From Macrolepiota albuminosa (lineage: Eukaryota > Basidiomycota > Agaricomycetes > Agaricales > Agaricaceae), in NCBI GenBank assembly GCA_027475525.1, contig JAMWFC010000044.1:1489340-1553339 (forward strand): a stretch of DNA of 64,000 nucleotides, given 5' to 3'. The notes below the pieces were generated by a model. That model saw only the letters and a list, made by a program, of their open reading frames with translations, searched no databases and had not been told where the DNA came from. Of the stretch, positions 40,786 to 64,000 are shown piece after piece. How positions within the stretch are numbered: position 1 is the stretch's first letter; each line of letters opens with the position of its first letter. Position numbers and translations under genes: made by a program.

Positions 40786-41076
40786 CTACACCTACTGTGA
40801 AGCATGGAGGAGGGAATAATCTCATGGTATGGGGCTGTATAGGTTGGAATGGGGTAGGAAAGCTACACCTACTGTGAAGCATGGAGGAGGGAATAATCTC
40901 ATGGTATGGGGCTGTATAGGTTGGAATGGGGTAGGAAAGCTTGTGGAGGTGGTGGGGATCATGAATGCAGAGCAGTACTATGAAATTTTGGATGATGGAG
41001 GAATGGGGTAGGAAAGCTTGTGGAGGTGGTGGGGATCATGAATGCAGAGCAGTACTATGAAATTTTGGATGATGGA
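40786..41076. repeat. Two overlapping perfect 77-bp tandem duplications
   Basis: 40786-40862 equals 40863-40939 (two further bases match by chance), and 40923-40999 equals 41000-41076. Both lie in the transposase 2 coding region. Confidence 0.95.
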
Positions 41077-42830
41077 GCAAAGAAGAGCTTTGAAAAGTTG
41101 GAGATGGAGGAGGGTGCCCACTAATTTAAACAGGACAATGACCCCAAACACAACTCCAAGAGGGCTGCCAAGTGGTTTGAGGACATCAACTTTGATGTCC
41201 TTTGGTGGCCAGCTCAATCCCCTGATCTCAACCCTATTGAATATCTCTGAGAGTACCTCAAGGAGCAACTTAGGCAGTATGAAATCTCTCCTTATGGTGT
41301 GCATGAATTATGGGAGAGGGTTGCAAAGGAGTGGGATGAAATACCACCAGAGGTATGTCAAAGACTAATAGAAAGCATGCCTAGAAGGATTCAAGCAGTT
41401 ATCAAGGCAAATGGAGGACATACAAAGTACTAGATACTAATATTAGAGATGCTCAAAAAACTGTCCCAATGAGTGAATATTTTAAAATGGCTATTGCTCC
41501 ATCAGTTTTGATTATAATTACATAAACCTAAATTCATTTTGTATCTACAATGCCATAGTATTTTACATGATTTAATTAGGACTTTGGGTACTTCTCATTC
41601 TTCATGCCAATGTCATCTTTCAAAAAGTATAAAACATTGGGACAGTTTTTTGAGCTACTGTATTTAGACAATATATTTGTCTTTTCTGACACCATTGAGG
41701 ACCATGAGCAGCATCTTTGAGTAATTTTTGAATACTTGAGGTCAAACTTGCTGTACCTCAAATAGAAGAAATGCAAGCTCTACTTTGAGGCAATTGATTG
41801 CCTTGGATACAAAATTGAGAGTCAGAGTATTTACTCTGACAAGGACAAGATAAATCATATATGTGAGTGGAGAGTGCCCTGAACATATAATGATGTTCAG
41901 AGATTTGTGGGCTTGGTGAACTATATAGGCAATTGTTTGCCTGATATTACTGCTTATATGGGGCTACTAATGTCCATCACGCAGAATAGAGCACCATTCA
42001 TATAGCGGCCCATTCACCAGCAATGCTTTGAGATGATAAAACACATCTGCTCAAAAACTCCTGTGATCTACCCTATTGATCTGAGATAATCTGAGTCTAT
42101 ATGGCTCATATGTAATGCCTTAGAGACCAGCATTGGGGCCATGTATGGCCAGGGTCAAACTTGGCAAACATGCCATCCTGCTGGATTCATGTCCAAGAAG
42201 TTCATGTCAGCACAGCAGAATTATGTGGTGCACAAACTAGAAACATTAGCAATACTTGAGGCACTCCTTAAGTAGGAAGACAAGCTGATTGGATATAAGA
42301 TCCACATCATCACTAATTATAAAGCACTGGAGTTCTTCAAAACTCAAGCATTCTTATCCTCCAGGCAGTGCCAGTAGATTGACTACATGTCACGGTAGAC
42401 ATTACATATATCAAAGGTGAACTCAATAAAGTCGCTGACTATCTCTCAAGATACTTTGAGAGCAATAGCACTACTGAGTATCACAATAGTTATGAGTATG
42501 TCAATGCAGATATACACATTGATCTCCAAGGTGATGACCTCCCCTATCATCAATACAAGGAGGTCAAGGAACATGTAGTAGAGCTCGGAGCAATGCAAGC
42601 ATAGGAGCTATAGTGTAGTAGGCACATAATGGAGAGGCATGAAGTGCAAGACATAGAAGCTGAGCAGCTTAGCCTAGCTCAGCAAGGCTCAAGTCTGTAA
42701 TCAGAAGGCTTGGAGCAGGAGCTATCAGGGCAAAGATATTGGAAAATGACCCTTGCTAATACGTTGAACTTGTGTGGAAGAGCCAATGTGCCTCCTAGTA
42801 GTTACAAACTACTTTGGAATCATGGTTAAA

Positions 42831-42890
42831 CAGTTGTACCTGAAGGACTTATTGTGTGCTGAGGTGTTGGAACACTTGGATGACCATCCA
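42831..42890. other. Junction between relic H and the LTR of element D
   Basis: Short sequence with no recognisable feature. Confidence 0.4.
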
Positions 42891-43412
42891 TGCTATAAGA
42901 GCAACCTCTAGAGACTGTGGCTCAGTCACACAGCTGGCAGAGGGAGATCCAAAGTATATTACAGTATGTACTGACAATATCATAAGAACTACTCACCTGG
43001 CAGAGGAAGATTCAAAGAAAACAAGTCTAGAGATTTCCTATGCCAGATTGAACACTTCTGGGGCTTCTGAAGCATGGAAAACAACTGTACAGTACAACAA
43101 AACCTTAAAACCTTGAAAATTGACTAACTAAACAACTATGCAAACAAGACAGAAAAACTCTGGACTTTAGAAGTCAGAAAGGCAAACTCTGGCTTATATA
43201 AGCAGTCTGGAAGTGGTGCTAAAGGGCTCACACTTGTCTGAATGATAGCTAAAGAACCAGAGCACCTCAAAGGCTGAGAATAGTACTAACAGATAGTGTT
43301 GAAAGAATAGAAACAGCAAAATAAGAGAATGATAGAAGAAATAAAGAAATGAATGGAAGGAGAGTAAAGAAATAAGGAGTGAAAGAAGGAAGAAATGAGG
43401 AGTCCCCTGACA
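42891..43412 (-). repeat. 3' LTR of Ty3/gypsy relic D
   Basis: 522 bp from TGCTATAAGA to CCCCTGACA, followed on the plus strand by TCACCCCCCCTTT, the complement of a purine-rich tract, as expected beside the 3' LTR of a minus-strand element. Homologous to the relic at 12929-13512. Contains TATATAAGC at about 43,196. Confidence 0.75.
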
Positions 43413-46400
43413 TCACCCCCCCTTTAAAGTGTGATGTCTCGACATGCTGGATAGAAGTAGTTCTAAATGGCCTAGTCTATCTTGGAAAGAGAATAGAGGC
43501 CTCTGATTGCCTGGGAAGCATTGGGATGCTGTTGATAGAATTTTCAGACTAAGGCAGGGGCATGGACATTCTCTTGTGGCTCTCAGGAGATATTCTTGAT
43601 TTTATAGCCCTTCTACTTAATCTTGAACTGAAGCTTGTTTCTAAAAAGTTGGCTGTCTAGGATCCATTCTACTTCATACTCTTCTTGGTTGTCTACCAGA
43701 ACTGGAGGTGGGGGTGGCTGTGAGTGTTGACCTGGGATTGGATCCTCTGGTGCAGGAAAGAGCTTCACCACATTGAAGACTGGATAGAGTCGACTCATTC
43801 CACTAGGCAGCTTGAGTCAATAGGCTAGTGGGCCTACTTACCTTACTATAAGAAAGGATCCTAGATGGCAATGAAAGAGCTTCTGAGAAGGTCAGGTAGT
43901 AGTGTCAGAGGCATCCAGATAGACTCGATCTCCAGGCTTGTACTTGGAAGCTGGAGTTTGTCTATGATCATAGTAGTAGGCCATGGCATCCTTTGTCTTA
44001 GCTAAAGCAGCCTTGGCTTCCTCCTAGGCTGCCTTCATCCAATCTACAAACTTGTTGACAGCTTCATTCTTTGAAGGTTGTCCATGAGGCTTGAATTCCA
44101 TATGAGGATGTTGACGGCTTAGTCTAAAGGCAAAGGTCACAGGTGGAGGTGTAGGGGCTAATATACTGTCACATTTGAAGCCACCAGTAATTCTGGGAGA
44201 CCAGCTCCAGTGTCTTCCATCTGCCAGGATGTCCTGCAACTTGGGAGTTGTGATGCTGCTCCACAATCTGCCTCTGGAGGTCTGGCAGATTGGAAACATA
44301 AATGTGTCCCCAGAAGGTGAGAAGACTATTCTCCAAAGACCATTGATACGACGCTGTACCAGCAGTCAGGGACACAACATGCACCAGAAGTCAAAATAAA
44401 CATTTAATTATAAGGCTGAAAACTGTAAGCCTCCTGGTAGCAGTCTCAACAAATTATATCTCCAAAAACACCCCAATAAATACACAGACAGTACAGAACA
44501 AAGGGCAGGGACCAGCTCAAGCTATCCACTCAACAATAGTCCAACCACTGTAATGGGGAGGGGAAGCATGGGAGCTGGCAGAAGTGACAAAATGGGATCA
44601 ATTTGTGATGATCTAGATCAAGATCAGATCTGACAATGCCCGATTTGACATGACTGAAAGGGGAAAGGAAAAGAAGCATGGAGGGATGTCAAAAGAAGCA
44701 TGGAATGCAGGGAAGCGCTAAAAGGGGAAAGAAGGATCTATGAATGGGATCGTGCTAAATGGAGCTGAAGCAAATGGGGAAGTGGCAATCAGAGACATCC
44801 AGAGGAATGATGGAACAAGAAGTTGAATGGTGGAACTGGTGGCACCGAAACATGCCTCCCAAAAGGGAAATTGGACTATCAAATATGTTCTGGAGGCTGG
44901 AGAGTTGACAACAAAGAGTCAGGTGTAGATAGTGGTCTGTGCACCAGAAAAACAGTATAAATAGCCCAAGTTTAGTAGAGAATAGACAGGCAATTGATAG
45001 GCAAAGGCTCGGTGGTTCCCAGGGAGTGAATCACTTAGGCTAGAGTTTATTGAGCACCTCTCATTGGAAGTCTATTGGTAGACAAAGGCTTGGTGGTTCC
45101 CAGGGAGTGAACTGCTTAGGCTGGAGTTTATTGAGAACCTTCTTCTGCCTATCAGGATATTTGATATTCTGTGAAGCACCCAATACATCAAGTTTTTATC
45201 ATCAAGCACCAGTGTGGATTAGAGGTCACTTTCTAAGACTTCAAGAAAGCCCCAGAACTATCAGTAATACTTACACCAAGTACTACACCATTCATCAGTG
45301 CAGATAGACTTTACTCCAGTTTTCTCTCAAGCATGCAAGGCCAGGGCAGCCTTGGCTACCAGATCTTCTTGAGCACCCTCTCAGTTACCTTGTTGGATGT
45401 CTCAAAGGATGCTCACTTCTTCTCCCTGGCCAACCATACCCTCTAGAGCACAGATAGCAAATAGTTTTGGCTTCAGGAGTACAATATTGTCATTGTCGCT
45501 AGCTCCTGAACCATGGTCTGCTTGCCTAGAAAGTATGTCTGGCTTGCCCATGATCTATCCAGATTTGTGATGTAGAGAGAAGTCAAAGTTGGCCAGATAA
45601 AAGAACTATCAAGCCTGTCAGACGTTAAGTTTCTTGGCTGTCTGAAAGTACTCTAAGTACTTGTGATCAGTCTACACCTTGAATTTATGCCTGGCACCCT
45701 CAAGAAAATGTTACTACTTCTCAAATGACCAAATAATAGCTAGCATCTCCTTGTTATAAATCTTATAATTTTGCTCCATGGCATTGAGACTCTTGGAGTA
45801 GAAATTGGTATAGATGAGGGTATCCTCAAGGTATACATACACAACATCTTCTGCTATAAGGTCTCAGAAAATGTCATTTATCATGGTCTGGAAGATTGCA
45901 GGGCTATTAGTAAGGCCAAAGAACATTACCAGAGTTTCAAAGAGTTCATGATTTGTTTGGAATGCTGTCTTCCACTCATTGCCTTCTTTGATGCACACAT
46001 TGTTGTAGCCCCAGCAGACATCAAACTTGATGAAGTAGTGTGCACCTCAGAAGTTGTTGATAAGCTCTGAAATGAGTGGTAAGGGGTAGTAATTTTTTAC
46101 AGTCATCGCATTCAAGACTCAATAGTCCTGAACCAGACGTAGAGATCTATCCTTTTTTTTAATGAAGAAGACTGGAGAGGCCATTGGAGGCTTTGCAGGG
46201 TGGATGCAACCAGAGTCTAAATTTTCCTGCAAAAAGGCATCAAGCTCATCCTGTTCTCTGGAAGAGAGAGGATAGACCTTTTAGCTAGAGGGCTCAGCAT
46301 TAGGCATAAGCTTGATCACATGGTTCCACTGCTTATGCTCTGGCAGGGAGTCAAATGATGCCTTAGAGAAAACATCCTCAAAGTCTTGCAAGTGATAAGG

Positions 46401-47430
46401 AAGTGCATTTTGAAACAACTTAGGAGCAGAGCTAGCAGCAAATGCCTGAGTTAGCTGCTGGGAAGTAGTTTGGCTAGCTCTAATCTCTGCTACAGTTGGT
46501 GGTGGTCATAATGTAGTTGCATAAATCCTATCACCTGTCTTGATAGCCTGGTCTAGAGACTCTGGGTCAAAAGCACACCCAAATTCACCTTTACGTCCAT
46601 CTTCTATCTGGGCTTCACTCACTACACCTCAAACATCCTCACAGAGAGCCTCTCTATAAGGGAACACCAAGGAGAGAGGATCCAGTAGGTCAAGGTCTGC
46701 AAAGGGGAGGTGTCCAACTTGGCAAGCCTGGATAGCAGCATGCTCACAGACCAACTCTCTATGCTCATCTCTAACTTTCTTGGCACATGTGGAACACTGT
46801 CAAGGGCAGTAGCTCATACTCATCTTACTCTTGGCCCAGTCAATCTCAGGATTGCGATCATGCAGCCAGGAGAACCCAAGTATCATGTCCTGCTTTCCTA
46901 GGCTGGTAACCGCAAAGACAGCATGCTTAGAATGAGTCTGATAACAAAAGACTAAATCCACCACTGAGCAGATGGATCCAGCTTTGTTGAGCATACCATC
47001 AATGTTATAGACTGGAATAGGGTGAGAGAGGGGTCAGGTAGTGAGCTGGTGTTGTTTCACATAATTGGTGTCCAGAAAGAGTCTAGTAGCACCACTGTCC
47101 AAGAGAGCTATGACGCTTCAAGTCTGCTGAGTGTCAGTTGTCTCAATTTCCACATTCAGACACAGAGAATTGGGAGAGCAAGTGGAGGCAACAACATAGC
47201 AATGAGGAAGGTGTTGTTCCCAAGCTGGAACACATGGTCATTGGATAGGAGAAGGAGGAGAGGAGGTCTTAGCTGAGGTTTGGACTAAGGGGGTATTTTG
47301 TATGTCAGAGGGGGTGCTTACAGTTTCAGTCAGAGAATCAGGAACAAGGAGCAATACATTAGAAGATTCTACTGATAGACATGTGAACCAATTAGCACCA
47401 GTTGGAGGAGGTGTACAACTCATCCATTGC
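43413..47430 (-). pseudogene. Pol relic of element D: protease, RT, RNase H, integrase, chromodomain
   Basis: Minus-strand order: protease end (46994-46800; GKQDMILGFSWLHDRNPEIDW), RT and RNase H (about 46,300-45,300, many stops), integrase zinc-binding part (44384-44170; QHHNSQVAGHPGRWKTLELV, NYWW), and the start of a chromodomain after the integrase tail (43798-43613; SRLYPVFNVV, a Pro run, EEYEVEWILDS). This is a chromovirus different from A/B and closer to the G type. A non-pol insertion of about 0.8 kb (about 44,386-45,200) splits it. The 5' end (gag, 5' LTR) is missing near 47.4-47.6 kb. Confidence 0.75.
44386..45200. mobile_element. Unclassified repeat inserted in element D, possibly a solo LTR
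   Basis: It interrupts the integrase-RNase H continuity of D. It has no coding frame, carries an imperfect duplication with an 81-bp offset near 45,000-45,120 and AATAAA-type signals on the minus strand, and its left end (about 44,375-44,440) recurs inverted at about 13,915-13,990. The exact ends and target duplication could not be read. Confidence 0.35.
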
Positions 47431-47589
47431 TCTATTGAAAACCCTCCTCTGCAGAACTAAAGGACCCATCCAATGGTTCTGCTACAGCTTCCACAGAATC
47501 CAAGGACTCCTCCAAAGGTTCTGTTTGAGTGTGTACATCTGAGGAGGGGTTATATAAGCAGTCTGGAAGCAATGCTGAAGGGCCCACAC
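47431..47589. other. Remnant with LTR-D-like sequence
   Basis: Contains a stretch TATATAAGCAGTCTGGAAGC like the D-family LTR (about 47,550-47,589), immediately before the next LTR fragment. Probably the eroded end of element D. Confidence 0.4.
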
Positions 47590-48190
47590 TGTCACGACCC
47601 CTCCCACCCCTCCCACCTAGAACCACCCCAGGACTCCCCTGCCAACCCTATGACATGACCCCTGCCATTGGAACTGCCACCACTGCCATCACGCATATCA
47701 AGCCCTGCCATGACACTGCACCTCCTGACAGCCCTGCTACACAAACCCCAGAACTACCCCTGGCATGTGCCAATCACTGGATCATGCCAACTACTCCAGC
47801 CATCATGCATCACGACACCCTTCTGTGCCAATTGATTGAGTGCCCTGCATGCACAATCCCCGATATATAGTTTCTCCCTTCTGCCACCACCCATTAACTC
47901 CCAGAACTGTCCCAGATATCCTGGGACCCCTCAGGAACCTGGAGCAGCCACCCCCAGTATTTAAGAGTAGCTACCCACTTGTCATACGCTAGTCTTGATA
48001 TTACATTTGATTGCTTGCGTGCCCTTTGATTGACTGGTATGCACTGACTAGCATGCTTGACTGGCATGCTTTGACTGGCATGCTTTGACTGGCATGCTTT
48101 GACTGGCACGCTCAACTTGGTTGCATGCTTCTAAGATTGGTATGCACTTCACAACTTAAACTTCACTAATCAGGTCTTGTCCTAGAACCC
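47590..48190 (+). mobile_element. LTR fragment of the element-G family, plus orientation
   Basis: Starts TGTCACGACCCC like the complete LTRs and runs in plus orientation to TCCTAGAACCC, where the minus-oriented LTR of element G begins. The last part of the LTR is therefore missing here. Includes the 14-bp tandem motif (about 48,045-48,115) and a TATTTAAG box near 47,960. Confidence 0.8.
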
Positions 48191-51410: not shown

Positions 51411-52352
51411 TGATAGGACCCCATACAGGTTAGGCGCATCAACGGCAGGCTCGGCACCAGCTCCGGAAACCTTGCCGCACTCGTTCCGAACTTAGCGCAC
51501 GCATTCTACCTATTTTAAGCCATTCCCGACGGCCGGACATGGCAAGAAGCAGATCCGATCAATGATAGCGCCGACGGCAGCAAGAATGACAACTGACAGA
51601 TGGCATCAGTCACTGATGACAGCGCTTAGCAAGAAGCCTGATCATCTATCAAAAACTGACGGACAGCTTGGTGTTTGACCTTGGCATCTGACACCGCTTA
51701 GCGCTTCGATTTGGCACCTAGCATCGCTTAGCCTTTTGGACAGACAGAAAGGTGATGGACTGATGGTTTAGCACCACGATCTGCTGCCTGGTGGCGCTAA
51801 GGGTCTTGAATGGACGGCAGGGATCTGAAACTGTTGGAGCTACCCCTATGAAATTTTCTAGTTTACCGCTCTTTGACCACTGGCGACGGCGAACTCTTTG
51901 TAGTATAAAAGTACTTACCGACTTGTACAATCATCAGAAGACGAATAGACCAGAGTTCACTACTCCCCTTTCTTCAGTCTCCCTTACGCTCAAGAGCTCA
52001 TTTACGCTACGGTCGGCAGCGTCAAACTCATCGGCAGTTGCAGACGCTTACCAACACTCGACATACTCGTGCCTTGCAACTACGGCAGGCATTATCGACG
52101 CTTAGACTTCACTAAGCTTATCGTCCTCTTGCCGCTTACCTTTGCCGTGTTCACTTACCGCTTCTTCCTAGGCGCTTTACCTTAGCGCTTTACACTTGCC
52201 GACCTCGTTACTGACTCTTCCCCATTTTCACAGGCATGTTCTCTGGGACCTGCCCGGGACTCCTCAAATCACTTATAGCGCGCCCAACGCAAACTCTTGG
52301 TACAGTAACACTAAAACTACATTTGTTACTGACCAAACTTTGGGCGTCATCA
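51411..52352 (+). repeat. 5' LTR of element E
   Basis: TGATAGGACC...GGGCGTCATCA. The U3 part carries repeated words such as CCGCTTAGCGCT and GCATCGCTTAGCC (about 51,690-51,735). TATAAAA lies at 51904-51910, so transcription should start some 25-30 bp downstream. The solo LTR at 7181 and relic at 15720 belong to the same family. Confidence 0.96.
51904..51910 (+). promoter_or_regulatory. TATA box in the 5' LTR of element E
   Basis: TATAAAA in the context GTAGTATAAAAGTAC; conserved as TATATAAAG in the solo LTR at about 7,673 and repeated in the 3' LTR at 62316-62322. Confidence 0.6.
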
Positions 52353-52355
52353 AAT

Positions 52356-52374
52356 TGGAGCCCACCGCGAGGGA
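52356..52374 (+). promoter_or_regulatory. Primer-binding site of element E
   Basis: TGGAGCCCACCGCGAGGGA starts three bases after the 5' LTR. The TGG start is complementary to a tRNA CCA end; the tRNA species could not be named from the sequence alone. Confidence 0.7.
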
Positions 52375-52735
52375 TCTCTAGGGCAGAATTCCGCCAGAAA
52401 CCCGTCTCCAGCGTAGGCACCGTCTGCTAGAGCAGTCAGCAGAAGGCATTGCTCCTTCCCACCCATCAACTCCACAACCACCTGGTGCCTTACCGGGTCT
52501 CTCTCTCGCACAGGAACTACAGAACGCCACTGTAGACGCATTTCCTGATCTCTTTCCGCATTCCCTCGACTTTAGCGCCGACGACCTCTTAGCGTCGCCC
52601 CTTGCCGTACCGCAACCAGTTACCCCCAGTACTCCTTTAACACTGCTTTCACAACTCGTCATTTCGCTCACTCCGTCGCCAACCTCTAGAACTCCTTCCC
52701 CACCACCGCTAACCGAACTCGTCAACACAGTCGCT

Positions 52736-55700
52736 ATGGAACAACAAGTCCAGCGCATGCCGCCACGCAACCACTTCTCAGCACCGAAATGGGACGAGAC
52801 CAAGCCACGGGAGCTCTCCCAGTATTTCAAGGAATTAGAGTATTTATTCAGAGATTGTAACATTACCGACCACACACAGATGAAGGAGTATGCGGCAAGA
52901 TACGTATCGTATGACATGGCAGAGACGTGGACAGGTTTGACCGAGTTTGCCGCCTTTGCTCCTGCCGCACCGCCAGTGCCTGCCCAAGGCGCTTTGTATG
53001 AGGACTGGAAGACGGCAGTAATCCAGCTGTACCCTGGCGCAGAGGAGGCTACCCGATACACGGTAAACAAATTGCAGAAATTAGTTCAGGAATCTTTCGA
53101 CAATGGCACTTCTTCTCTTGGCGCATTCTCCACGTATTACCGCGAGTTCCAGAAAATCGCTAGGTGGCTTCTGCAGAACGGCAAGCTCTATATTAACGAG
53201 GAACGTCGCCTGTTCCAACAAGGCATCCCGACTTCGCTTTGGACTCGTATTGCTCGTCGCCTAGAGATAGTCCATCAGGCCCATCACCCAGATGAGCCCT
53301 ATAACGTTGCCGACGTCTTTGAAGCCGGTAAATGGGTTCTCAAGGGAACGGACACTGGCATCACCCAGATGAGCCCTATAACGTTGCCGACGTCTTTGAA
53401 GCCGGTAAATGGGTTCTCAAGGGAACGGACACTGGCGTTGGTATATCACACGCTAGGACGAGCCCACCCCCTGAGCGAACTAACGGTATCATTCCCATCC
53501 CGCCTCCTACTACCGACTTCGTTAAGAAAGAGGAACTCAATGCTGCCATTACCGCTGCTGTCGCATCCGCCATGACTCGTATCGAAACTATGATTACCAC
53601 CAACCTGACTGCTAACCGACCCGCTAACGTTCCTGCACCTGGCCCTTGCCACTTCTGTGGGGAAATTGGCCACACCATGACTAGAGGACGCTGCGTGACT
53701 TATTCGGCAAGGGAGAATTCGAAGGGCTATCGACGGCAAGATAGTTCTTACCTCTGGCGCCACCATTCCCAACTACCCCGACAAGAAGTCCTTCCAGGAG
53801 AGAGTTGATGAATGGCATAGGCGCAACCCAGGACAAATCGTTACCGGCACGCTATCTGGCAACGCCAACCCCGACCCTGAACAGGCGACCCAACAGCAAA
53901 TGATCCACGAGGTCTTACACTTCGACAGCGTTGGCGACCGCCCTACTTTCTCGCGGGAAGAGCGTATCGCCAAGCTACAGCAGGAATTGGATTTGCTGAA
54001 GAATCAGGTGTTTGATGGGGTTGAAGTTAAGCAGCCCAAACAACCTCTCAAAGGATACAAGCCAATGCCTCCCACTAGCAAGTTACCGACACCTGCTCCT
54101 GCCGCACCTCCTGCCGCTCCGCCAGCCACTAACCCAGAACCATCATCATCCGCTACCGCTCCCGAACCGCCTTTGCCACCTCTTCATCCCTATTCAGGGA
54201 TTCCCGACCGTTATCATGCTTCCGCACAACGAAACTTTGCCGCTCCCGAGAAACGTCCTGAGGGTGGTTACTGACCAACTGCGCCAATTTTCGACATAGA
54301 GAAATCCAACCACGTCTTCAACCGCATTATGAAAACCGCCGTCACCTTGTCAGTAGAAGAACTTTGTAGTATTGCTCCCGACGTCCGCAACCAAGTCAAG
54401 ACGGCAGTCACTCCCCGACGACCCTTGGCGACAGCCGTTGCCGAGGTTGATGAACTCGACGATGCGCTTCCTGGTTTCTCTGTTACCATCGACTCTCCCG
54501 ACACTGAAGACACTCCTGCCGACCCTATCGCTAACGCCACCTCTGTGGACCCTGTGGAGACCTATCTTAGGTCAGTAGACCATGGAGAAGACCCAGCAAT
54601 CCTTACCATCGCTCAAGAATCGCACGCTATCCGCTCAGTAGCACTAACTGTCGACAATAAGCATGAGGTAGAGGCAATTGTGGATAGCGGGTCTCAAATC
54701 ATTTCTATGGCAGCAGAAGTTGCTAACGATCTAGGCCTTATTTACGACCCTACGGTGATACTAAACATGCAGAGCGCTAACGGTACGGTGGACAGATCTT
54801 TAGGCCTCGCTAAGAATGTGCCCTGCACCCTTGGCAACATTACATTTTACTTACAGATACACATTTTACGCTCCCCGGCATACGATTTACTACTTGGCAG
54901 ACCCTTCGATGTCTTGGTGCGATCAGTCGTCAAGACTGTTACCGACGACGAGACAACTTTAACAATTAGCGACCCTAATTCCGGAATCCGACGAACGGTG
55001 CCAACGTTCCCTAGGGGACAACGAAAAGGCGCCCTCGCTAAGCCACCGGAGTTTACCGACCAACACGCCAACGAACGACCCCACAGGTGTTTTCACAGAC
55101 CATCGAGGAGGTGATTGGCGACGATCACGGAGATGTGGCGCTAATGCTAGAATATGACCATTCAACTGGTCTTGTAAATGTTATGTCTACCGCTTTTCTT
55201 GACAAAGAGGTTTTAACTACTTTATCCGTTACCGACGCTGAGCTTTCTCAGAAAAACCCAAACATTACCGACTCCGCTCTAGCGTACTTATACCTTACCG
55301 CTTCCGAATCCTTTCAAAACATTGCGTCTACCGATACTTATCTCACTACTCTTCCCGGAGCCTCGTCTCCTGCCGTTCTTGGACTTGCCGCCCCTCAGGC
55401 TACAGTTCCCCTTTCCACTTCTGTATATAACCAAGCTAACGCTCCCAAAAGGAAAGGGGTTCAAGTTAAAAAGAAATATAAGCCAGTTGTGCTTAAAACA
55501 AAACCCATTGCTACACACTCTCCCAAGACGTTTAGGATCGAGCGCCAGATTATTGGCGACCCTCTTGCCAACATGCCGACTTTATTACCGAATCCGCCAC
55601 CCTTTCAGCCCACAGGACGCTTTACCGCAGAACGCCAACAGCAGTTCGCCAAGGAGCACGACACAGGATTTTTGACCAAAGATGAGTTGAATGTCCTTAC

Positions 55701-58700
55701 CGATCTCGTCGCTAAGCAGGATAAAGCCTTTGCCTGGGAGGACTCAGAACGCGGTAGTCTGCGTACAGATTTCTTCCTGCCTGTCGTCATTCCGACCATT
55801 CCTCACGTGCCGTGGACTGAGCACAACCGACCGTTACCGCCTAGAATCGAAGCCGAGGTCTGCCAAATCATTAGGACCAAGATAAAGGCTGGCGTCTACG
55901 AGCCCTCCAATAGTTCTTACCGCTCCTGATGGTTTTGCGTCCTCAAAAAGAACGGTAATCTGCGCATAGTCCACAGCCTGGAACCGCTAAATAGAGTTAC
56001 CATTCAACACTCTGGCGTACCGCCTTTCCCTGACCACTTTGCCGAGTCTTTTGCCGGGCGCATTTGTGGTGCCACCCTTGACCTCTACGTTGGCTACGAC
56101 GAACGCCTGATACACCCTTCTTCCCGGGATCTCACTACCTTTCAAACTCCGTTTGGCGCCTTGCGCTTAGTTACCTTGCCGATGGGCTGGACAAACTCAG
56201 TCCCCATATTCCATGACGACATCACCTTCATCCTCCAACCCGAGATACCGCATAACGTCCTAAGCTTCATTGATGACGTTGGCGTCAAAGGCCCCAAAGA
56301 CTGGCGACTCGTAAACGGCTTACCGGCGACCCATCCCGAGAACCCCAATATTTGCTTAGCGCTATGGGATTTTTTCCAGCTGCTCAATCGAGTTCTCCAA
56401 CGTATGAAGTATAGCGGTGGTACGTTTAGCGGTCACAAACTCCTCCTTTGCGCGCCCAAATTCAAAATACTCGGTCACATCTGCACTCCCGATGGTCGCG
56501 TTCCCGACGAGTCTCGCTTAGCACTCCTAGAGCGATGGGGTCCTTGCCGCGACTTATCTGAAGTTCGCGCCTTTCTCGGTACCGTTGGCGTTCTTAGAAT
56601 ATTCGTCAAAAACTTTGCCCATCGTGCACACGCACTTAACCGACTCACCCACGCCAACGAGCCCTTCGAATTTGGGCCAGACCAGGTTACCGCACAACGA
56701 GACTTAGTAAAAGCTCTACAAGACGCCAAGCCCCTAGTCCCCATCGATTATACCTCTGCCGACCCTGTTATCTTGGTGGTGGATACCTCGTACATTGCCG
56801 TTGGTTACTTCTTGTGCCAATGCCTTAGCGACAATCGGAAACAGCGACGTTACAACTGCTTTGGGTCTATCACGCTAAACGACCGAGAATCTCGCTACAG
56901 TCAGCCTAAGCTAGAGCTCTATGGACTCTTCAAAGCCTTCCGGTCGCTAAAGATGTATTTGATTGGCGTGCGGAACCTTATTGTTGAAGTCGACGCTAGG
57001 TACATCAAAGGCATGCTGCAGAATCCCGACATCCAGCCATCCGCTAGCATGAACCAGTGGGTAGTCGCTATCCTCATGTTTCACTTTGAGTTGGTACACG
57101 TCAAGAGCTCTTTCCATGGACCAGATGGACTCTCTAGGCGACCACGGCAACCTGGCAACCCGGCAGTGGATCCACAGGCTGATAGCGATTTCGAAGACTG
57201 GATCGACCGACTACATGGTTTTGTGCACCTCATACAACAACCGATTCCCCTACTACGATGGCAACAGCCTACCAGCATATTTCTACATCCCATTATCCCT
57301 TACCGCCCCGAGATCTTTAGCGCACCCATCACATTCTACACGGCAAGCATCCTTGGGCAAAATTCGCCTCCCGTAAAAGTCATACAAGAACCTCACCCGC
57401 TAAGAGAAGACAGCAAAAACCTGACCTACGATGCCATTCCCCGATCCGCCAAAGCAAAGGCAGAAGACAGCTGCTTGTTAATCGTTGAACAATGGCTACA
57501 AGACCTTAAGCGACCCCCAGACCTTACCGATGAACAATACGCGACCTTTATCCGTTATGCCACCCATTTCTTCTTTACCGACAACCGACTCTGGCGACGA
57601 AATCGAGATGGCGCGCACAAGCTAATCATCAAGCCAGAAAGTCGCTTACGAGTCTTGCACGCCATGCATGACGAACTAGGACATAGAAGCCTGTACGCTA
57701 CCCGAGCTTCTCTGCTAGAACGATTCTGGTGGCCACACGCTAGTGCCGACATCGCTTGGTACATTAGGACTTGCCACCTCTGCCAAATTCAACAGACACG
57801 CCAAGTGCTCATACCGCCAACCGTTGCAACGCCAGCTCCCCTCTTCAGCAAAATCTACGTCGACACCATGCACATGCCCAAGTCTGGTCGCTACAAGTAC
57901 ATCATTCAAGGTCGTTGCTCGCTAATTCACTGGCCTGAATTTCGAATGCTTCAGAGAGAAAATACCGAGGCGGTCACCAAGTGGCTATTTGAAGATGTCA
58001 TTTGCCGTTGGGGGGCACTAAGAGAAATCGTCACGGATAACGGTGCGCCCATTATCAAAGCGCTAACATATCTCGCCAAGAAATACAACCTTCACCACAT
58101 CCGAGTATCTGGCTACAACAAGCGCGCCAATGGCTTGGTAGAGAGACCACACTTTGACGTTCGGCAAGCGCTCTTCAAGGCGGTCGATGGCGACGAGTCT
58201 CGTTGGAGCGAAGCGACCTATTCAGTGTTCTGGTCGGAAAGAGTTACTATTCGTAAGCGCATGGGTTGTTCTCCCTATTACGCGGCTACTGGCACCCATC
58301 CGTTACTCCCTGCCGACATTATAGAAGCAACCTACCTTCAGCCAGCACCCAACAGCATCTTAGCGACTACCGACCTTATCGCCAGACGAGCTATTGATCT
58401 CCAGCGAAGGAAAGAAGATTTAGAGCGACTCCACGAGGTAGTCTTTAGCGCACGTCGCCAAGCAGCAATACGATTTGAGACCGAGCATAGCGCCACTATC
58501 AAAGATTACAACTTCCCGAGGGGCACACTAGTACTCATGCGCAACTCCAAAATCGAGACCTCATACAACAAGAAAATGTGCCCGCGCTATCTAGGACCCT
58601 TGGTAGTTATCTCTCGTAACCGTGGAGGCGCTTACGTGCTCTGTGAATTAGATGGTTCAGTACTACATCGACCTGTTGCCGCCTTTCGTCTATTGCCATA

Positions 58701-58836
58701 TCTCGCCAGAGAACACATTGACTTGCCGCTTGAAGCGCTAGACATCGACACCGCCAAGCTGAGAGAACTTGAAGAAACTGAATTGTTGGACGATGATGAC
58801 TTGCCGACTCTAGTTGAAGAAGAAGAAAATGATTAG
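52736..58836 (+). pseudogene. Gag-Pol polyprotein of element E
   Basis: ATG 52736 opens Gag (MEQQVQRMPPRNHFSAPKWD), followed by a zinc knuckle of unusual spacing (C-x2-C-x4-H-x6-C, near 53,650), a Pro-rich linker, a region with TLSVEELCSIAPDVRNQVK (like DUF4100 of mushroom retroelements), retropepsin with AIVDSGSQI (near 54,680), RT with LPMGWTNS and FIDDV (near 56,270), RNase H (VVDTSYIAVGYF, VEVDARYIKGM, PDGLSRRP) and integrase (CHLCQ, VDTMHM, VTDNGAP, VERPH). Breaks: a 77-bp duplication at 53282-53435, apparent 1-bp losses near 53,700 and 55,085, and TGA at 54272 (SGGY-R-PTAP context) and 55927 (SYRS-R-W context), both CGA-like. From 55930 the frame is open to the stop at 58836. No chromodomain; acidic C-terminus. 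Confidence 0.9.
53282..53435. repeat. Perfect 77-bp tandem duplication in gag of element E
   Basis: Copies at 53282-53358 and 53359-53435 are identical. Frames before (52736) and after (53332) are 596 bp apart; subtracting 77 gives a multiple of three, so removal of one copy restores Gag. Confidence 0.97.
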
Positions 58837-59263
58837 AAAAGACTATATATTGATAAGCTCTTTCTTTCTATTACTTATCTTACTTATCTTTCCTGCCGAT
58901 ACTTACTGTACTATATCCAACAGACATTTCTTTACATAGTCAAGTCGCAGCGCTAGCGTGTCGCCAATGCTTAGCGCATTGCGCAACTCTCGCCAAGGGT
59001 TTTTCGCTATGATGATTTACTGAGCGTTTCCCTTGTCCTCAAAATTTGTCTAAGTCCCTCACATACTATTGCTCTTGCTAAAAACCTACTTTAGAATACT
59101 TACCGCTTGCTTTCTCTTTGCCTTACTTTCCTTGCTCTTTGTTGTTGCGCTAACTCAGATTATAAGACTTATCCGTCCACTCGGCAAGGAGGCGGCAAAA
59201 ACATTTAAATAGCACGACGGCAAAAGAAAATATATACGGTGGCCACTCTACGCTAAGGTCCGC
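58837..59263. other. Spacer between the convergent genes of element E
   Basis: No coding frame. Pol ends on the left and the antisense gene ends on the right, so the 3' ends face each other; A/T-rich stretches here could serve as poly(A) regions for the antisense transcript. Confidence 0.5.
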
Positions 59264-61652
59264 TCAATTACTATCGTCCTCCAACGGCAGGGAACTATCT
59301 GACAACGGCAAGGAGGAATCGTGAAGAGGGAGGAGATCGCCCGGCAAGATGTTGTTGGCGGTCTGCCAATCCATGGCAGCTTGGCAGTCGTTCTGGTAAT
59401 CACGAAGAACGCGAAGGCTGCGACCCAGATTGGAGTAACGTAACCTCAGCGCCATCAGTTGACCTCGGACTCATTCCCGCTCCTGACTCATTGTCGACTC
59501 CATCGTTGCCGCCCTTCTCGAGTACCTCTCCAGCATTTCGCGAGGGTTGAGCGCTATGACTGGGTAGACGAGGTCTTGTCCCAGCCACTGGAAAGCGTCG
59601 CCAGTGACCGTCGGCTCCGGCTGAGGGGTCCAGGCAGGATTGACCCTGGCGACCACGGGGCGCCTAGGCTCCAGTCCGGCAACGTCCTTGGGATCTGACA
59701 CCTCCCAGGGGGCAACGTTACCGTAAGGCGGTAGCCACCGCCACTGAGGCTCCTCCCGGGCGACTTCTGCCGCTGCCTCCCCTTATCCCTCACCCTCTCC
59801 CGCTACCATCTCCTCGTCGCCTTGGCGCTGCGTCGCCAAGGTTTCATCCTCCTCCCCTTCAGCGTCCTCATCCCCTCCCGTTGCCACCCCCTCTGCCTTC
59901 TCATCCCCCATCTTGATGTCGGCGGGGGCTTCTTCCCGCTCTGCCTCCTCCTGCTCCTTGCCAAGGGACCGTGCCGCCAAATGAATGGGCGACAAAAGGC
60001 CACTCGGGCCTGCCTCAGGATCGCGAGGAGGCAGGCGACTCGCCACCAATGCCTTCTCAAGGTCCTCCATCTCGGTATCCTTTGGCGCTGGCGAGGGGGA
60101 AGGCGACGACGAGACTACACGAGGGCGCTTGGCTTTGCCCTTCCCTTTGCTTGGGGAAGGGGCTTGACGTTTTTCTGGGACCGAAGTCCCTTGGCGCTCG
60201 CCGGCGCCTCGATTGCCGACAGATTCTGACCCATCCCCTTGGCGTGTCGGCAACGCCAAGGAGGCCCGTCCAATTACTGCCATTCCACCGGCAGCGACCT
60301 TCTGCTTCTGACCCTCCACAAACTCCCTTGCCCTCCTGACCAAAACAGCGTGCGAAAACGTTTTCTCGACCAGAGCGTCTGGCGCGCTGCCACGCTTGCG
60401 ACTCTTTGCCCCGTCGATAGTACAAGCGCGTTTGAGGGCGCCACAACGATAGCATGGCTGGGCCCCAGTCGGGAACCAGCAGCCTTCTGGGTTGTTGTCC
60501 GCCCAGCACTTGTCACACTAGCGCTAGGAGTTAGCAAGAGACTAAAGGATACAGAAAAGTCACTTACCGCTCCCCGTGCCTCCTTGAACGCCTGCCGAGT
60601 CGCCAGGGAAACAGTCTTTTTCCCCTTCATCTCCTCCATCACGACCCCGGCCTCTTGCCCCTCGTCAAGGACGGCCTCCTTGCGACGCAGCAAGAGCAGT
60701 CCTTTGAGCTCCTTGTCATCGAAACTGGACTGTGTTGGCGCCTAGAAGGATCACAGTAAATAAAGAGGCCAGACTTCCAAATGCCACTTACCGCGTATTG
60801 AGGAGCCGCCTTGCGACTCTACGAATGACGTTAGCGACCGTCGGCAACGGCAAGCGAAAATCAGAACTTACCTTGCGTTTGGAAGCACCCGCCGGCTTCC
60901 TCGGCGAGCCCGACTTGCTAGCCGGCAGCACTGGGCTCAAAGTGCTGCCGGCGCGACCTACCTTGCCGGATCCCTCAGTTACCGCCTGCCTCTCAACGGC
61001 AGGCGCCTTCCCCGCAGCCACTCCCTCCATCTCCTCCGCCAACTCCCTGACCCGCTCCCGCTCCTCCAAAGCCCTGGTGATCTCCCAGGCATCTTGAGAG
61101 ACTTCCTCTTGCCGCTCCGCCAGCTCCTCAGCCACCTGCATCCGCGCCAAGGGCGCCAGAACCTCCTGTTTGCTGTGAGGAGACAAGTCAGACCACAGCT
61201 AAGTCAGAAATCAGGATCAGAAATACTTACTCAGGCGCAGGCGCGCTTACCGTCATCGGCAAGGCACCAGATAAAATGTCCTCCAACTTGTCCTCAATCG
61301 TTGGGATGGGAGGAGGCGCCTGGCAAAGCGATCAGCTAGCGACACAGCAAGAGCTGGAGGTACTTACAAAACGAGAAAAAGGCACTAACCACTCCGCGCC
61401 ACGATGATCCAGGTACCGCAATCGGCACCACTCTCAAACCTCTATTTCACGATCCCAGCCCACGCCAAGAACGCGCACCTCCAGCCACCACTCGTACAGC
61501 TTCATGACGGCAACCACCAAATTTACTGGTGCGTCCGCGCCAACACCATCGATCCGCTTAAGAAAATTATTCGCCTTTTCGATATAGGCGGAGGCAGCGT
61601 CTTGAGCCTCACGGGAGGGAACAGGGGGCGGAGTTGGAATGCGAAAAGACAT
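59264..61652 (-). pseudogene. Antisense accessory gene of element E: six exons, zinc-cluster-like protein (709 aa if intact)
   Basis: Opposite strand to gag-pol; ATG 61652 is 171 bp from the 3' LTR. Exons 61652-61368, 61319-61231, 61172-60872, 60818-60792, 60741-60568, 60517-59264; introns of 48, 58, 53, 50 and 50 bp, each GT(A/G)AGT...AG, several with CTAAC/CTGAC branch boxes. Spliced length is 2,130 nt, 710 codons, one phase throughout. Protein: Pro-rich start MSFRIPTPPP; Glu/Arg-rich coiled-coil-like part (RALEERERVRELAEEMEGV); Lys-rich linker; a six-Cys cluster C-x2-C-x8-C-x8-C-x2-C-x6-C then basic SRKR at the start of exon 6, close to the fungal Zn2Cys6 pattern; basic tract GKGKAKRPR; acidic DEDAEGEEDE; C-terminal helix. 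Stops at 61434 (TGA), 59783 (TAA) and 59471 (TGA) disable this copy. A nuclear DNA-binding role is inference. Confidence 0.75.
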
Positions 61653-61811
61653 TTTAAATTTTATGGAGCGCCAGGAAAAGATGGGAAGAAGAAACGAAGT
61701 CCACACTCATACGCCAGGACTATAAACAAAATCTCAAGAACGCACGGACCACTGGTCACAAAAGCGGTAACGGTAGCCTTATTTGGTGACTGAGGACAGT
61801 CAATTTTTCAG

Positions 61812-61822
61812 TTGGGGGGAGA
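61812..61822 (+). promoter_or_regulatory. Polypurine tract of element E
   Basis: TTGGGGGGAGA directly before the 3' LTR. Confidence 0.8.
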
Positions 61823-62764
61823 TGATAGGACCCCATACAGGTTAGGCACATCAACGGCAGGCTCGGCACCAGCTCCAGAAACCTTGCCGCACTCGTTCCG
61901 AACTTAGCGCACGCATTCTACCTATTTTAAGCCATTCCCGACGGCCGGACACGGCAAGAAGCAGATCCGATCAATGATAGCGCCGACGGCAGCAAGAATG
62001 ACAACTGACAGATGGCATCAGTCACTGATGACAGTGCTTAGCGAGAAGCCTGATCATCTATCAAAAACTGACGGACAGCTTGGTGTTTGACCTTGGCATC
62101 TGACACCGCTTAGCGCTTCGATTTGGCACCTAGCATCGCTTAGCCTTTTGGACAGACAGAAAGGTGATGGACTGATGGTTTAGCACCACGATCTGCTGCC
62201 TGGTGGCGCTAAGGGTCTTGAATGGACGGCAGGGATCTGAAACTGTTGGAGCTACCCCTATGAAATTTTCTAGTTTACCGCTCTTTGACCACTGGCGACG
62301 GCGAACTCTTTGTAGTATAAAAGTACTTACCGACTTGTACAATCATCAGAAGACGAATAGACCAGAGTTCACTACTCCCCTTTCTTCAGTCTCCCTTACG
62401 CTCAAGAGCTCATTTACGCTACGGTCGGCAGCGTCAAACTCATCGGCAGTTGCAGACGCTCACCAACACTCGACATACTCGTGCCTTGCAACTACGGCAG
62501 GCATTATCGACGCTTAGACTTCACTAAGCTTATCGTCCTCTTGCCGCTTACCTTTGCCGTGTTCACTTACCGCTTCTTCCTAGGCGCTTTACCTTAGCGC
62601 TTTACACTTGCCGACCTCGTTACTGACTCTTCCCCATTTTCACAGGCATGTTCTCTGGGACCTGCCCGGGACTCCTCAAATCACTTATAGCGCGCCCAAC
62701 GCAAACTCTTGGTACGGTAACACTAAAACTACATTTGTTACTGACCAAACTTTGGGCGTCATCA
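61823..62764 (+). repeat. 3' LTR of element E
   Basis: Same 942-bp length as the 5' LTR, seven transitions apart. Its inner edge lies next to the start of the antisense gene, so it may supply that gene's promoter in reverse orientation. Confidence 0.96.
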
Positions 62765-62768
62765 CTGG

Positions 62769-64000
62769 GAGTCCAGTCGGGGGTGTCTTCCCATTTCCGG
62801 TCAGCGTGTTTTGTATAGGCCTGGTTCGCGGTGTCGATCTCTTCTCAGAGAAACTCATAAAGGGACTGGAGATCCTGGGCGACCTTGTGGGCGGCGTGTG
62901 ACGGGATGTCCCGGAGTGAGGGTGTCAGTTGGGGGTGGTATCCCTTGTTGGCAAAGAAGGGCAATACTCCGGTGGCAGAGTGCGGCGTGTTGTTGTAGGT
63001 GAACTTGGCCAGAGGGAGCTCGGCGTGCCAGTCGTCCTGCAAGTAGTTAACGTACAGTCGGAGGTACTGCTCGAGAGACTGATTGACCCTTTCAGTTTGA
63101 CCATCAGTTTCGGGGTGGTAGGCAGTAGAGAGGTTAGTCTTTACTTCAAGAGCCTTACACAGAGAAGTCCAGAACTTGGACACAAAGAGTGGGCCATGGT
63201 CGGAGACGATGTTGTCTGGGAGTCCATGTTTGGCGAAAACATGCTCGAGGAACAGCCGGGCGAAGTCCGTGGTGTGGCAGGGTAGTTTGGTTAGCCTGCA
63301 TACAATGACGAGAATGGCATTGAACCCTTCAGATTCTGGGAGTTTGACGATGTGGTCCAGGGATATGGAGGACCAGGGGCGTTGTCCGACCAGCAGGGGT
63401 TTCAGGAGTCCGTATGGTCGGTGTCGGGAGACCTTGGCCCGGAGGCAGGGTTTGCATGATCAAATGTAACGGGTCATGTCCTTCTTCAACCCTGGCCAAA
63501 AGTAAGTCCGGGAGATAAGCTAGAGGGTCTTACGTATTCCAGAGTGTCCCCGGAGCTTGTGGTCGTGGTGTTGACGGAGGACGTCGTAGCAGAGTCAGGC
63601 GTGATCCGGGATGTAGATGCGGCCGTCCCAGAGGAGGAGTTTTTTGTCGGGGGACAAGAAGAAGGCGGGGTCCTGGTCGGTTCCGTCGGGGGGGTTGCCG
63701 GGGTCGTGGTCGGTGAAGTACTTGTCTTGGGGGGTGCGGCGGATCTGGCTCAGGGTCCCTTCATTGTTTAAGATTAGTACGGCATTCAGATGTTTGGGAG
63801 GGATCACCATGTGATGATTGAACGCATTGCGTTCCGCCTCGAACGACTTCTTGGGGTAGACGTCCGGTCGACTGGTGAGGGCATTGGGTTTAGCTCCAAG
63901 TCGTTCTGGGCAGTACTGGATTGTGAAGTCGTACTCCGAGAGAATCTCGGACCATCAGGCCTGTCGTTGACTAAGTTGCTTGGTCGTGGTGAAGTACTGC
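62769..64000 (-). pseudogene. RNase H end and integrase of element G (to the window edge)
   Basis: Minus strand from the right edge: RNase H end (QYFTTTKQLSQRQAWWSEIL, IQYCPERLGAKPNALTSRPD), integrase N-terminus (HHDHKLRGHSG with C-x2-C near 63,455), first Asp in ISLDHIVKLPESEGF, second Asp in NIVSDHGPLFVSKFW, catalytic Glu in YHPETDGQTERVNQ (near 63,110), then the core up to the element E insertion. In-frame TGA/TAG stops at several places, for example before EEIDTA near 62,840. Continues at 51406 on the other side of E. Confidence 0.85.

What the first reader, a model, noticed from the sequence alone, without database searches (positions are those of the whole stretch)
59264..61652. A spliced, antisense zinc-cluster-like gene carried by LTR retrotransposon E
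Between pol and the 3' LTR, on the strand opposite to gag-pol, five short introns with consensus ends join six exons into one 710-codon frame. Five independent splices all keeping phase is very unlikely by chance, and the frame is protein-like (coiled coil, a six-cysteine cluster followed by basic residues, acidic tail). A retrotransposon gene with introns must be read from the antisense strand, because introns in the sense genomic RNA would be lost at each cycle; antisense introns survive since they are not spliced in the sense RNA. The six-Cys pattern is close to fungal Zn2Cys6 DNA-binding domains, so the element may carry its own transcriptional regulator or targeting factor.
Basis: partly seen in the sequence, partly recalled or inferred. 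Interest (0 to 1): 0.88.

Follow-up and report, generated by a model that had tools for sequence, protein, structure and literature searches.

The report
Spliced antisense gene in fungal retrotransposon
A jumping gene of a fungus carries, on its opposite strand, a real five-intron gene for a cysteine-cluster protein, and its whole length is peppered with one six-letter DNA word that may be the mark by which that protein recognises its own element.

Summary
The gene is real. Across 52 aligned copies splice sites are nearly invariant, exon lengths mostly keep phase and intron lengths do not; 18 of 52 are open, with median dN/dS 0.13. The genome holds 347 exact hits to this family's Cys-motif pattern; no copy lacking intron 5 was found. 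Annotated relatives found: only Termitomyces hypothetical proteins. Pfam Zn2Cys6 does not match and one Cys spacing is off, so 'zinc cluster' is resemblance, not membership.

Beyond the finding: LTRs, gag, pol and the antisense gene alike are saturated with the word TTRSCG (162 sites, 6.8 times expectation; 0.6/kb in the rest of the window). Synonymous-codon shuffles do not produce it (pol z 12.8). Copies keep the number of sites while positions turn over. A related family with a diverged antisense protein carries a different word, (T)AGCGC, with a weaker signal.

Best reading: the antisense protein is a self-recognition DNA binder, perhaps an anti-silencing factor working like Arabidopsis VANC. 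Gene and motif are shown; binding and anti-silencing are inferred.

The parts
51411..52352 (+). 5' LTR, 942 bp
   Evidence: 99.26% identical to the 3' LTR, 7 mismatches
52353..52380 (+). candidate primer binding site just inside the 5' LTR (TGGAGCCC...)
   Evidence: read from sequence next to the LTR end; tRNA not identified
52736..53575 (+). gag-like ORF (first part; named by position)
   Evidence: ORF list; no Pfam hit
54329..58836 (+). pol: aspartic protease, RNase H, integrase; not one open frame in this copy (ORFs end at 55114 and 55929, resume at 56161)
   Evidence: PF13975, PF17917, PF17919, PF17921; ORFs
61368..61652 (-). antisense gene exon 1 (ATG at 61652); in-frame stop at 61436 in this copy
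61320..61367 (-). intron 1
   Evidence: GT donor 49 of 52 rows; length equal mod 3 in 22 of 52
61231..61319 (-). exon 2
61173..61230 (-). intron 2
   Evidence: GT donor 51 of 52
60872..61172 (-). exon 3
60819..60871 (-). intron 3
   Evidence: GT donor 51 of 52
60792..60818 (-). exon 4, 27 nt
   Evidence: length kept mod 3 in 52 of 52
60742..60791 (-). intron 4
   Evidence: GT donor 51 of 52
60568..60741 (-). exon 5
60518..60567 (-). intron 5
   Evidence: GT donor 50 of 52 plus 2 GC; no intron-less copy found
59264..60517 (-). exon 6: Cys cluster, acidic stretch, C-terminal part, stop at 59264; in-frame stops at 59785 and 59473 in this copy
60422..60517 (-). six-Cys cluster CDKCWADNNPEGCWFPTGAQPCYRCGALKRAC
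   Evidence: only match to the relaxed six-Cys pattern in six frames of the window; six Cys kept in 37 distinct stop-free copies
61653..61822 (-). leader with a strongly conserved part (61700-61822): candidate antisense promoter with TATA-like TTTATAGT near 61722; polypurine tract next to the LTR
   Evidence: diversity 0.066 (61700-61760) and 0.022 (61760-61822) across 52 rows; 0.202 at 61653-61700
61823..62764 (+). 3' LTR, 942 bp; CTGG flanks both LTR ends outside (possible 4-bp target duplication)
51411..62764 (.). 162 dispersed TTRSCG/CGSYAA sites over the whole element

Best explanation
The feature is a selectively maintained accessory gene of a high-copy Ty3/gypsy family, transcribed antisense to gag-pol, probably from a promoter between the 3' LTR and its ATG, and spliced five times. 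Its product has (by a model of a relative) an N-terminal helical domain and coiled coils, a six-Cys, probably zinc-binding cluster and acidic stretches. It most likely works as a self-recognition DNA-binding protein: it binds the CpG-containing word TTRSCG, which selection has spread over every part of the element, and by coating its own DNA keeps it accessible, that is, it counters CpG methylation and heterochromatin (VANC-like anti-silencing). Shown by sequence: gene, splicing signals, purifying selection, motif, maintained motif number, a different word in a sister family. Inferred: transcription, zinc and DNA binding, that this protein is the reader of the motif, and the anti-silencing outcome.
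For: Gene. Linkage to the element: 56 of 72 exact Cys-pattern hits on contigs C1-C57 have a pol motif within 2.7 kb (median 1.93 kb), all 56 antisense and downstream of pol. Motif: TTRSCG ranks first of 138,240 two-degenerate hexamers in E (z 28; best of any in 20 Markov replicas 6.0); its four words are 5.9-8.9 times expectation, and of the other twelve TTNNCG words none exceeds 1.8 times. Selection: pol 38 sites against 6.9 +/- 2.4 in synonymous shuffles (z 12.8); antisense CDS of eight copies z 6.4-10.5. Stabilised number: 21-42 sites per antisense gene in 50 rows, 131 positions ever used, 2 of them in at least 90% of rows; pol piece 13-18 sites in 11 rows, 6 of 30 positions in all. DNA-level reading: 73 against 64 sites by strand in the internal region. 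Family specificity: sister family F2 with a diverged cluster has TAGCGC at 6.4-7.9 times in four loci, TGCCG and TGGCG at 0.7-1.7. CpG o/e is 0.9-1.06 in the bins inside E and 0.02-0.23 in 12 of the 25 two-kb bins before 50001. CGG/CGC in the word fits Zn2Cys6 binding habits (recalled).
Against: No RNA, binding or methylation data. The protein-motif link is association only, with two families. F2's best word (RGCGCY, z 13.0) is barely above that of an AT-rich control stretch of the window (z 11.3), its loci belong to one family (84-92% alike over long stretches), it keeps some TTASCG (2.4-3.8 times), and E's pol also scores for F2's TASCG (z 7.3, since TTASCG contains it). In the LTRs the sites are strand-biased (10:1 and 11:3), which a simple coating role does not predict. 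High CpG in E may only reflect recent activity (LTRs 99.26% identical). 19 of 78 pol-motif hits on contigs C1-C57 have no listed Cys motif within 2.7 kb (both lists are cut). AlphaFold gives pLDDT below 50 over most of the Cys cluster. No Pfam DNA-binding domain. The stretch between Cys 2 and 3 is acidic (WADNDPEG), unlike the basic stretch of Zn2Cys6 proteins (recalled).
Confidence: 0.45

Rival explanations
1. The antisense protein is a real regulator acting at LTR or promoter level (like HTLV-1 HBZ or Grande GENE23), and the dispersed TTRSCG word is read by something else, such as a host factor or the element's integrase or Gag.
For: [quoted passage not shown]). The LTRs hold 10:1 and 11:3 same-strand sites, on both sides of the TATAAAA box in the 3' LTR. 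A strongly conserved leader lies at 61700-61822.
Against: A promoter regulator does not explain about 14 sites per kb inside gag, pol and the antisense gene, kept against synonymous turnover, nor why the sister family with a diverged antisense protein has another word.
Confidence: 0.3
2. The word is an RNA or cDNA packaging or condensation signal read by Gag nucleocapsid, unrelated to the antisense gene.
For: The word is spread over the whole element body.
Against: Similar numbers on both strands in the internal region (73 and 64): as RNA these are two different words, TTRSCG and CGSYAA.
Confidence: 0.08
3. Mutational or compositional bias of the element makes the word abundant.
For: The element is CpG-rich relative to the window; CTRSCG is also 2.9 times expected.
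Against: Single-base neighbours are 0.5-2.9 times while the word is 6.8 times; synonymous shuffles with the same codons give about 7 rather than 38; the sister family shows it only weakly (1.5-2.1 times).
Confidence: 0.04
4. The antisense gene is a passively carried host-gene fragment without function in the element.
For: It has introns, as host genes do; no annotated family resembles it.
Against: Median dN/dS 0.13 with dS 0.74 between 18 open copies; at least part of it in 38 of 39 pol-anchored loci; two element families here and Termitomyces genomes carry diverged versions.
Confidence: 0.02
5. The high silent divergence of the antisense gene (pS 0.40 against 0.18 in pol, larger in 53 of 55 pairs) reflects escape from small RNAs made where sense and antisense transcripts overlap; the gene's role could be partly to make double-stranded RNA.
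For:: in the same copies LTR p is 0.09-0.10 against antisense third positions 0.31 and 0.47 in the two samples.
Against: Proteins are conserved; codon constraint in pol or constraint on the LTR could also make the contrast; copy sequences may be chimeric through assembly.
Confidence: 0.12

Closest known systems
[quoted passage not shown] PMC11963269: abstract, passages and Discussion read)
   Same: Same place and orientation, present in most copies, conserved, no clear host homologue, suspected nuclear and regulatory role, long pol-3' LTR region.
   Different: No detectable relation to the TRP28 family by Pfam; here five introns, a six-Cys cluster, a fungal host and the element-wide TTRSCG word. 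The word 'intron' does not occur in the main text of the 2025 Retand paper.
brtn of Boty-like retrotransposons, Botrytis cinerea (Zhao et al. 2011, not held; known here only through passages of PMC8365987 and PMC7264820)
   Same: Antisense gene in a fungal Gypsy element.
VANC anti-silencing proteins of Arabidopsis VANDAL transposons (PMC5735166: passages read; PMC10398659: abstract read)
   Same: Element-encoded protein tied to a short, family-specific motif dense in its own element; related families use different motifs; loss of methylation over whole elements.
   Different: VANDALs are DNA transposons (recalled); their motifs sit in non-coding regions, often tandem repeats; here the word is dispersed through coding sequence of an LTR retrotransposon. 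Binding is shown for VANC, not here.
HTLV-1 HBZ (passage in PMC11963269; splicing and bZIP nature recalled)
   Same: Antisense gene opposite to gag-pol, nuclear, spliced (recalled).
   Different: bZIP protein of a mammalian retrovirus; no body-wide motif known to me.
Fungal Zn2Cys6 transcription factors (PF00172)
   Same: Six cysteines in two CxxC pairs; second half C-x2-C-x6-C with basic residues; the word contains CGG/CGC.
   Different: No Pfam match; 8 instead of 6 residues between Cys 2 and 3; acidic first loop.
TET/JBP dioxygenases carried by fungal DNA transposons (PMC12730594: search listing and start of abstract only)
   Same: Fungal transposons carrying a gene that may counter methylation.
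   Different: An enzyme in DNA transposons; no such domain among the Pfam hits here.

Membership tests
Zn2Cys6 fungal zinc cluster (PF00172) | Matches the Pfam model | tested here: not met
   No PF00172 hit at E up to 10 for the L020 protein or an 82-aa Cys fragment, nor at E up to 1 for 47 Termitomyces relatives (HMMER filters drop most hits above 0.1)
Zn2Cys6 fungal zinc cluster (PF00172) | C-x2-C-x6-C-x5-12-C-x2-C-x6-8-C (pattern recalled) | tested here: not met
   C-x2-C-x8-C-x8-C-x2-C-x6-C; four of five spacings fit, one does not
Zn2Cys6 fungal zinc cluster (PF00172) | Binuclear zinc cluster fold | tested here: inconclusive
   pLDDT below 50 over most of the cluster in both models; no PDB match with E at or below 0.001 for the long model; the short model was not searched
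Zn2Cys6 fungal zinc cluster (PF00172) | Binds DNA at CGG-type sites | not testable with these tools
   Only a matching motif in the element is shown
Antisense additional ORF (aORF-3R) of LTR retrotransposons | Antisense, between pol and 3' LTR | tested here: met
Antisense additional ORF (aORF-3R) of LTR retrotransposons | Present and conserved in most copies | tested here: met
   At least part in 38 of 39 pol-anchored loci, these being the best pol matches to the window; antisense pN/pS 0.14 against pol 0.075 in the same 11 rows
Antisense additional ORF (aORF-3R) of LTR retrotransposons | Transcribed antisense | not testable with these tools
   No RNA data held
Antisense additional ORF (aORF-3R) of LTR retrotransposons | Homology to Retand TRP28 (not required of the kind) | tested here: not met
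   Not among the Pfam hits
VANC-like sequence-specific anti-silencing | Short motif densely and specifically in own element | tested here: met
   TTRSCG about 14/kb in E, 0.6/kb in the rest of the window with the LTR copy removed; not tested genome-wide
VANC-like sequence-specific anti-silencing | Motif differs between related families with diverged protein | tested here: inconclusive
   F2 has (T)AGCGC, little TTRSCG; only two families, F2 signal weaker
VANC-like sequence-specific anti-silencing | Motifs in non-coding tandem repeats | tested here: not met
   Sites dispersed through gag, pol and antisense exons
VANC-like sequence-specific anti-silencing | Protein binds motif and removes methylation | not testable with these tools
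   Needs EMSA, ChIP and methylome data
Ty3/gypsy LTR retrotransposon | LTRs; protease, then RNase H, then integrase | tested here: met
   942-bp LTRs; domains in that order. The reverse transcriptase domain itself was not matched in the four pieces searched

The most novel reading that the evidence does not exclude
An LTR retrotransposon family has evolved a complete self-recognition system: a spliced antisense gene for a six-Cys DNA-binding protein, and its cognate hexamer TTRSCG written by selection into the element about once every 70 bp, including the synonymous positions of gag, pol and the gene itself. The protein coats its own element to escape CpG methylation, and sister families have diverged in both protein and word.
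Probability: 0.35. Interest if true: 0.95.

Novelty: new variant of a known kind. Interest (0 to 1): 0.85.

Why it matters
Functions of antisense genes in LTR retrotransposons are described as unknown (PMC7264820), and how fungal elements escape methylation is largely open (recalled). Here a gene under strong selection sits with a motif whose number is held steady while its positions change. A selection-maintained recognition word running through the coding sequence of an LTR retrotransposon is something I know no report of; of the ten literature searches answered none was aimed at such a word in a retrotransposon. The pair gives a direct binding test and, if it holds, a natural sequence-specific chromatin tool from fungi.

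Tried and rejected
Host-gene passenger: rejected by dN/dS 0.13 and copy-wide phase conservation. Coding on the + strand of the same region: rejected; the facing wobble frame has pN/pS 0.24-0.49, in each of the five exons tested higher than the model frame (0.09-0.38), and in exons 1 and 6 it holds 3.2 and 8.3 stops per copy; in exons 2, 3 and 5 it holds 0.0-0.6 (exon 4 not tested). Second positions are the quietest in most bins of exons 1 and 6, but not in exon 3. Window-copy stops as extra introns: rejected, because periodicity runs through them and other copies are open. Pol against antisense divergence in loci picked by pol similarity (pS 0.18 against 0.59, rho 0.01) was biased by that choice; I replaced it by the reverse, conservative choice (rho 0.55). 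Mosaic structure between copies: not used, because perfect or near-perfect tandem duplications with an offset of 77 bp are scattered through copies (seven in the F2 locus; one in the window), which looks like an assembly k-mer artefact; this may also make 18 of 52 open copies a lower bound. A strict mosaic screen (under 5% in one block, over 50% in another) found 0 of 496 pairs. Structure: the fold search of the long model gave nothing with E at or below 0.001; the viral library and pdb_via were not tried. Viral contig scan for relatives with P0001: none. PDB sequence search of the Cys region: one chance-level match, E 5.3. My first copy number, 654 hits at up to 2 mismatches, includes F2-type clusters; exact patterns give 347 hits for the E type and 169 for the F2 type. 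Rows dropped before counts: L018, L034, L050, L062 and L067 were not aligned (truncated); of the 55 aligned rows (window and 54 loci) L054 (fragment), L013 and L045 (taken as duplicates of L012 and L044 because their match lists agree) were dropped, leaving 52; L031 and L066 were dropped too in the motif-position and CpG counts (50 rows).
Full report
What was checked. The element has 942-bp LTRs (51411-52352, 61823-62764; 7 mismatches), CTGG on both outer flanks, and protease, RNase H and integrase domains in Ty3/gypsy order.

Is the gene real? The window is part of a held 100 Mb, 129-contig genome. I fetched 59 loci in two samples: the 20 best after the window by similarity of the antisense region, and 39 by similarity of the end of pol, the best of 494 candidates. 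Of 55 aligned rows, 52 were used. Diversity shows three-base periodicity over the gene, in the predicted minus-strand frames, shifting phase between exons 6, 5, 3 and 2 as predicted. Exon lengths agree mod 3 in 49, 51, 47, 52, 51 and 43 of 52; intron lengths in 22, 20, 18, 23 and 22 of 52. GT donors are kept in 49, 51, 51, 51 and 50 of 52. In the model frame pN/pS is 0.15, 0.09, 0.38, 0.21 and 0.22 for exons 1, 2, 3, 5 and 6; the other frames give 0.24 to 3.9 (300 random pairs; exon 4 not tested). Eighteen rows are open to the common stop (17 from the ATG; three of them nearly identical); over their 153 pairs, three without silent change, median dN/dS is 0.13 and dS 0.74. The six cysteines are kept in the 18 open copies and in 37 distinct stop-free copies.

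How common, and is it tied to the element? The exact Cys pattern of this family has 347 genome hits and the reversed control none; at up to 2 mismatches there are 654, which includes the sister family described below. Of the 72 listed exact hits on contigs C1-C57, 56 have a pol motif 1.7-2.4 kb away and all 56 are antisense and downstream of it; 16 have none listed, and 19 of 78 listed pol hits on these contigs have no listed Cys motif nearby (both lists are cut, so these are bounds). Of 39 pol-anchored loci, 38 hold at least part of the gene. No copy without intron 5 was found: no exon-exon match at 0 or 1 mismatch, and all 29 matches at 2 mismatches still carry an AG acceptor.

Relatives. 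Three protein searches gave 12, 71 and 42 proteins (overlapping), every one named Termitomyces hypothetical protein, with many distinct proteins from one strain. Their gene models were made by others; the first twelve all keep the same Cys cluster. That tool needs shared short words and similar length, and the first two searches scored only the candidates sharing most words, so wider distribution is not excluded. Pfam finds nothing significant, PF00172 included. A model of a Termitomyces relative shows an N-terminal helical domain (about 13-112), long helices (125-194, 541-603) read as coiled coils, and no confident Cys fold; no PDB match with E at or below 0.001. A second model, of the window's Cys segment, was also below pLDDT 50 over most of the cluster.

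The unexpected part. Looking at word composition, I found the element saturated with TTRSCG: 162 sites in 11,354 bp where a dinucleotide model expects 23.8, in LTRs, gag, pol, intergenic DNA and the antisense gene alike. Among 138,240 two-degenerate hexamers it ranks first with z 28; the best of any in 20 Markov replicas reached 6.0. Four control stretches of the window reached 7.0, 8.5 (TTRSCG itself, from the LTR copy named next), 9.4 and 11.3. The rest of the window has 0.6/kb once a related LTR copy at 7181-8117, which itself holds about 20 sites, is removed. In the internal region the sites are on both strands (73 and 64), which argues for reading at the DNA level; in the LTRs they are mostly on one strand (10:1, 11:3). 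Shuffling synonymous codons gives 6.9 +/- 2.4 sites in pol against 38 seen, and the antisense CDS of eight copies is 6.4 to 10.5 standard deviations above its shuffles. Copies keep the number (21-42 per antisense gene in 50 rows) but not the place (131 positions used, 2 in at least 90% of rows). This is what selection on density, not on position, looks like.

A sister family. Searching with a Termitomyces protein brought up a second family in the same genome (L078-L083) with the cluster CDKCWSENDPEGCWFPTASLPCYRCDALKRGC (one residue different in L083) and 169 exact pattern hits. Its enriched word is (T)AGCGC (TAGCGC 6.4-7.9 times in four loci); TGCCG and TGGCG are at 0.7-1.7 and TTRSCG at 1.5-2.1 times. 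Synonymous shuffles give z 5.6 and 6.0 for TASCG in its two pol pieces but 1.6 and 2.8 for TTRSCG. The signal is weaker than in E: its best two-degenerate word has z 13.0, against 11.3 for an AT-rich word in one control stretch, and E's own pol also scores for TASCG (z 7.3). I read this as moderate support that word and protein diverge together, from two families only.

Other evidence on mechanism. E has CpG o/e about 1 while 12 of the 25 two-kb bins before 50001 lie at 0.02-0.23, as expected if many elements here are methylated and E is young or protected. CpGs inside kept motifs show TG/CA in 13.3% of cells against 19.0% for other CpGs, which selection on the motif alone could explain. The leader 61700-61822 is the most conserved of the non-coding stretches measured and holds a TATA-like box upstream of the antisense ATG. 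Silent divergence of the antisense gene exceeds that of pol in 53 of 55 pairs (median 0.40 against 0.18) in copies not chosen by pol, and LTR divergence is about 0.09-0.13 where antisense third positions differ by 0.31 and 0.47 in the two samples. I have no settled explanation; small-RNA escape, codon constraint in pol and assembly effects are candidates.

Comparison with what is known. [quoted passage not shown]). The parts of papers read report no five-intron antisense gene and no element-wide motif; my searches cover only an open-access library. The closest functional analogue is VANC of Arabidopsis VANDAL transposons, where related proteins act on different short motifs in their own elements and remove methylation (PMC5735166, passages; PMC10398659, abstract). 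The difference is that here the word runs through coding sequence of an LTR retrotransposon.

Verdict. The best-supported mechanism is a self-recognition DNA-binding protein with a cognate word spread over its own element. Binding and anti-silencing remain inference.

Noticed in passing
51411-62764; window 7181-8117; L009-L077: Element-wide dispersed hexamer TTRSCG on both strands, kept in number and not in position; not part of the finding as given, and the most surprising result here.
   Followed up: yes
window 53282-53435; C101:179000-190400 (L078-L080); overlapping match pieces in L016, L021, L024, L052, L053, L055, L059 and others; paired hits 77 bp apart: Tandem duplications with an offset of 77 bp (75-78 in some pieces) scattered through element copies; probably k=77 overlap artefacts of the assembly rather than biology.
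   Followed up: partly
L018, L062, L067: Three copies lack window-equivalent sequence from about 60571-60576 to 61822 and join directly to the first base of an LTR; nested insertion, deletion or assembly join not resolved.
   Followed up: partly
59264-61652 compared with pol and LTR: Silent sites of the antisense gene diverge about two to five times more than pol silent sites or LTRs between the same copies.
   Followed up: partly
L078-L083: A second, related Ty3 family in the same genome with its own antisense six-Cys gene and a different enriched word; its exact Cys-pattern hits fall into at least two codon types, so there may be more than one subfamily.
   Followed up: partly
window 62845-64000: Minus-strand ORF resembling a retroelement integrase region just outside the 3' LTR (ORF list; by eye); E may have inserted into or next to another element.
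   Followed up: no
window 1-6000, 12001-16000, 28001-30000, 40001-48000: Very strong CpG depletion (o/e 0.02-0.16), suggesting heavy past CpG methylation of other repeats.
   Followed up: no
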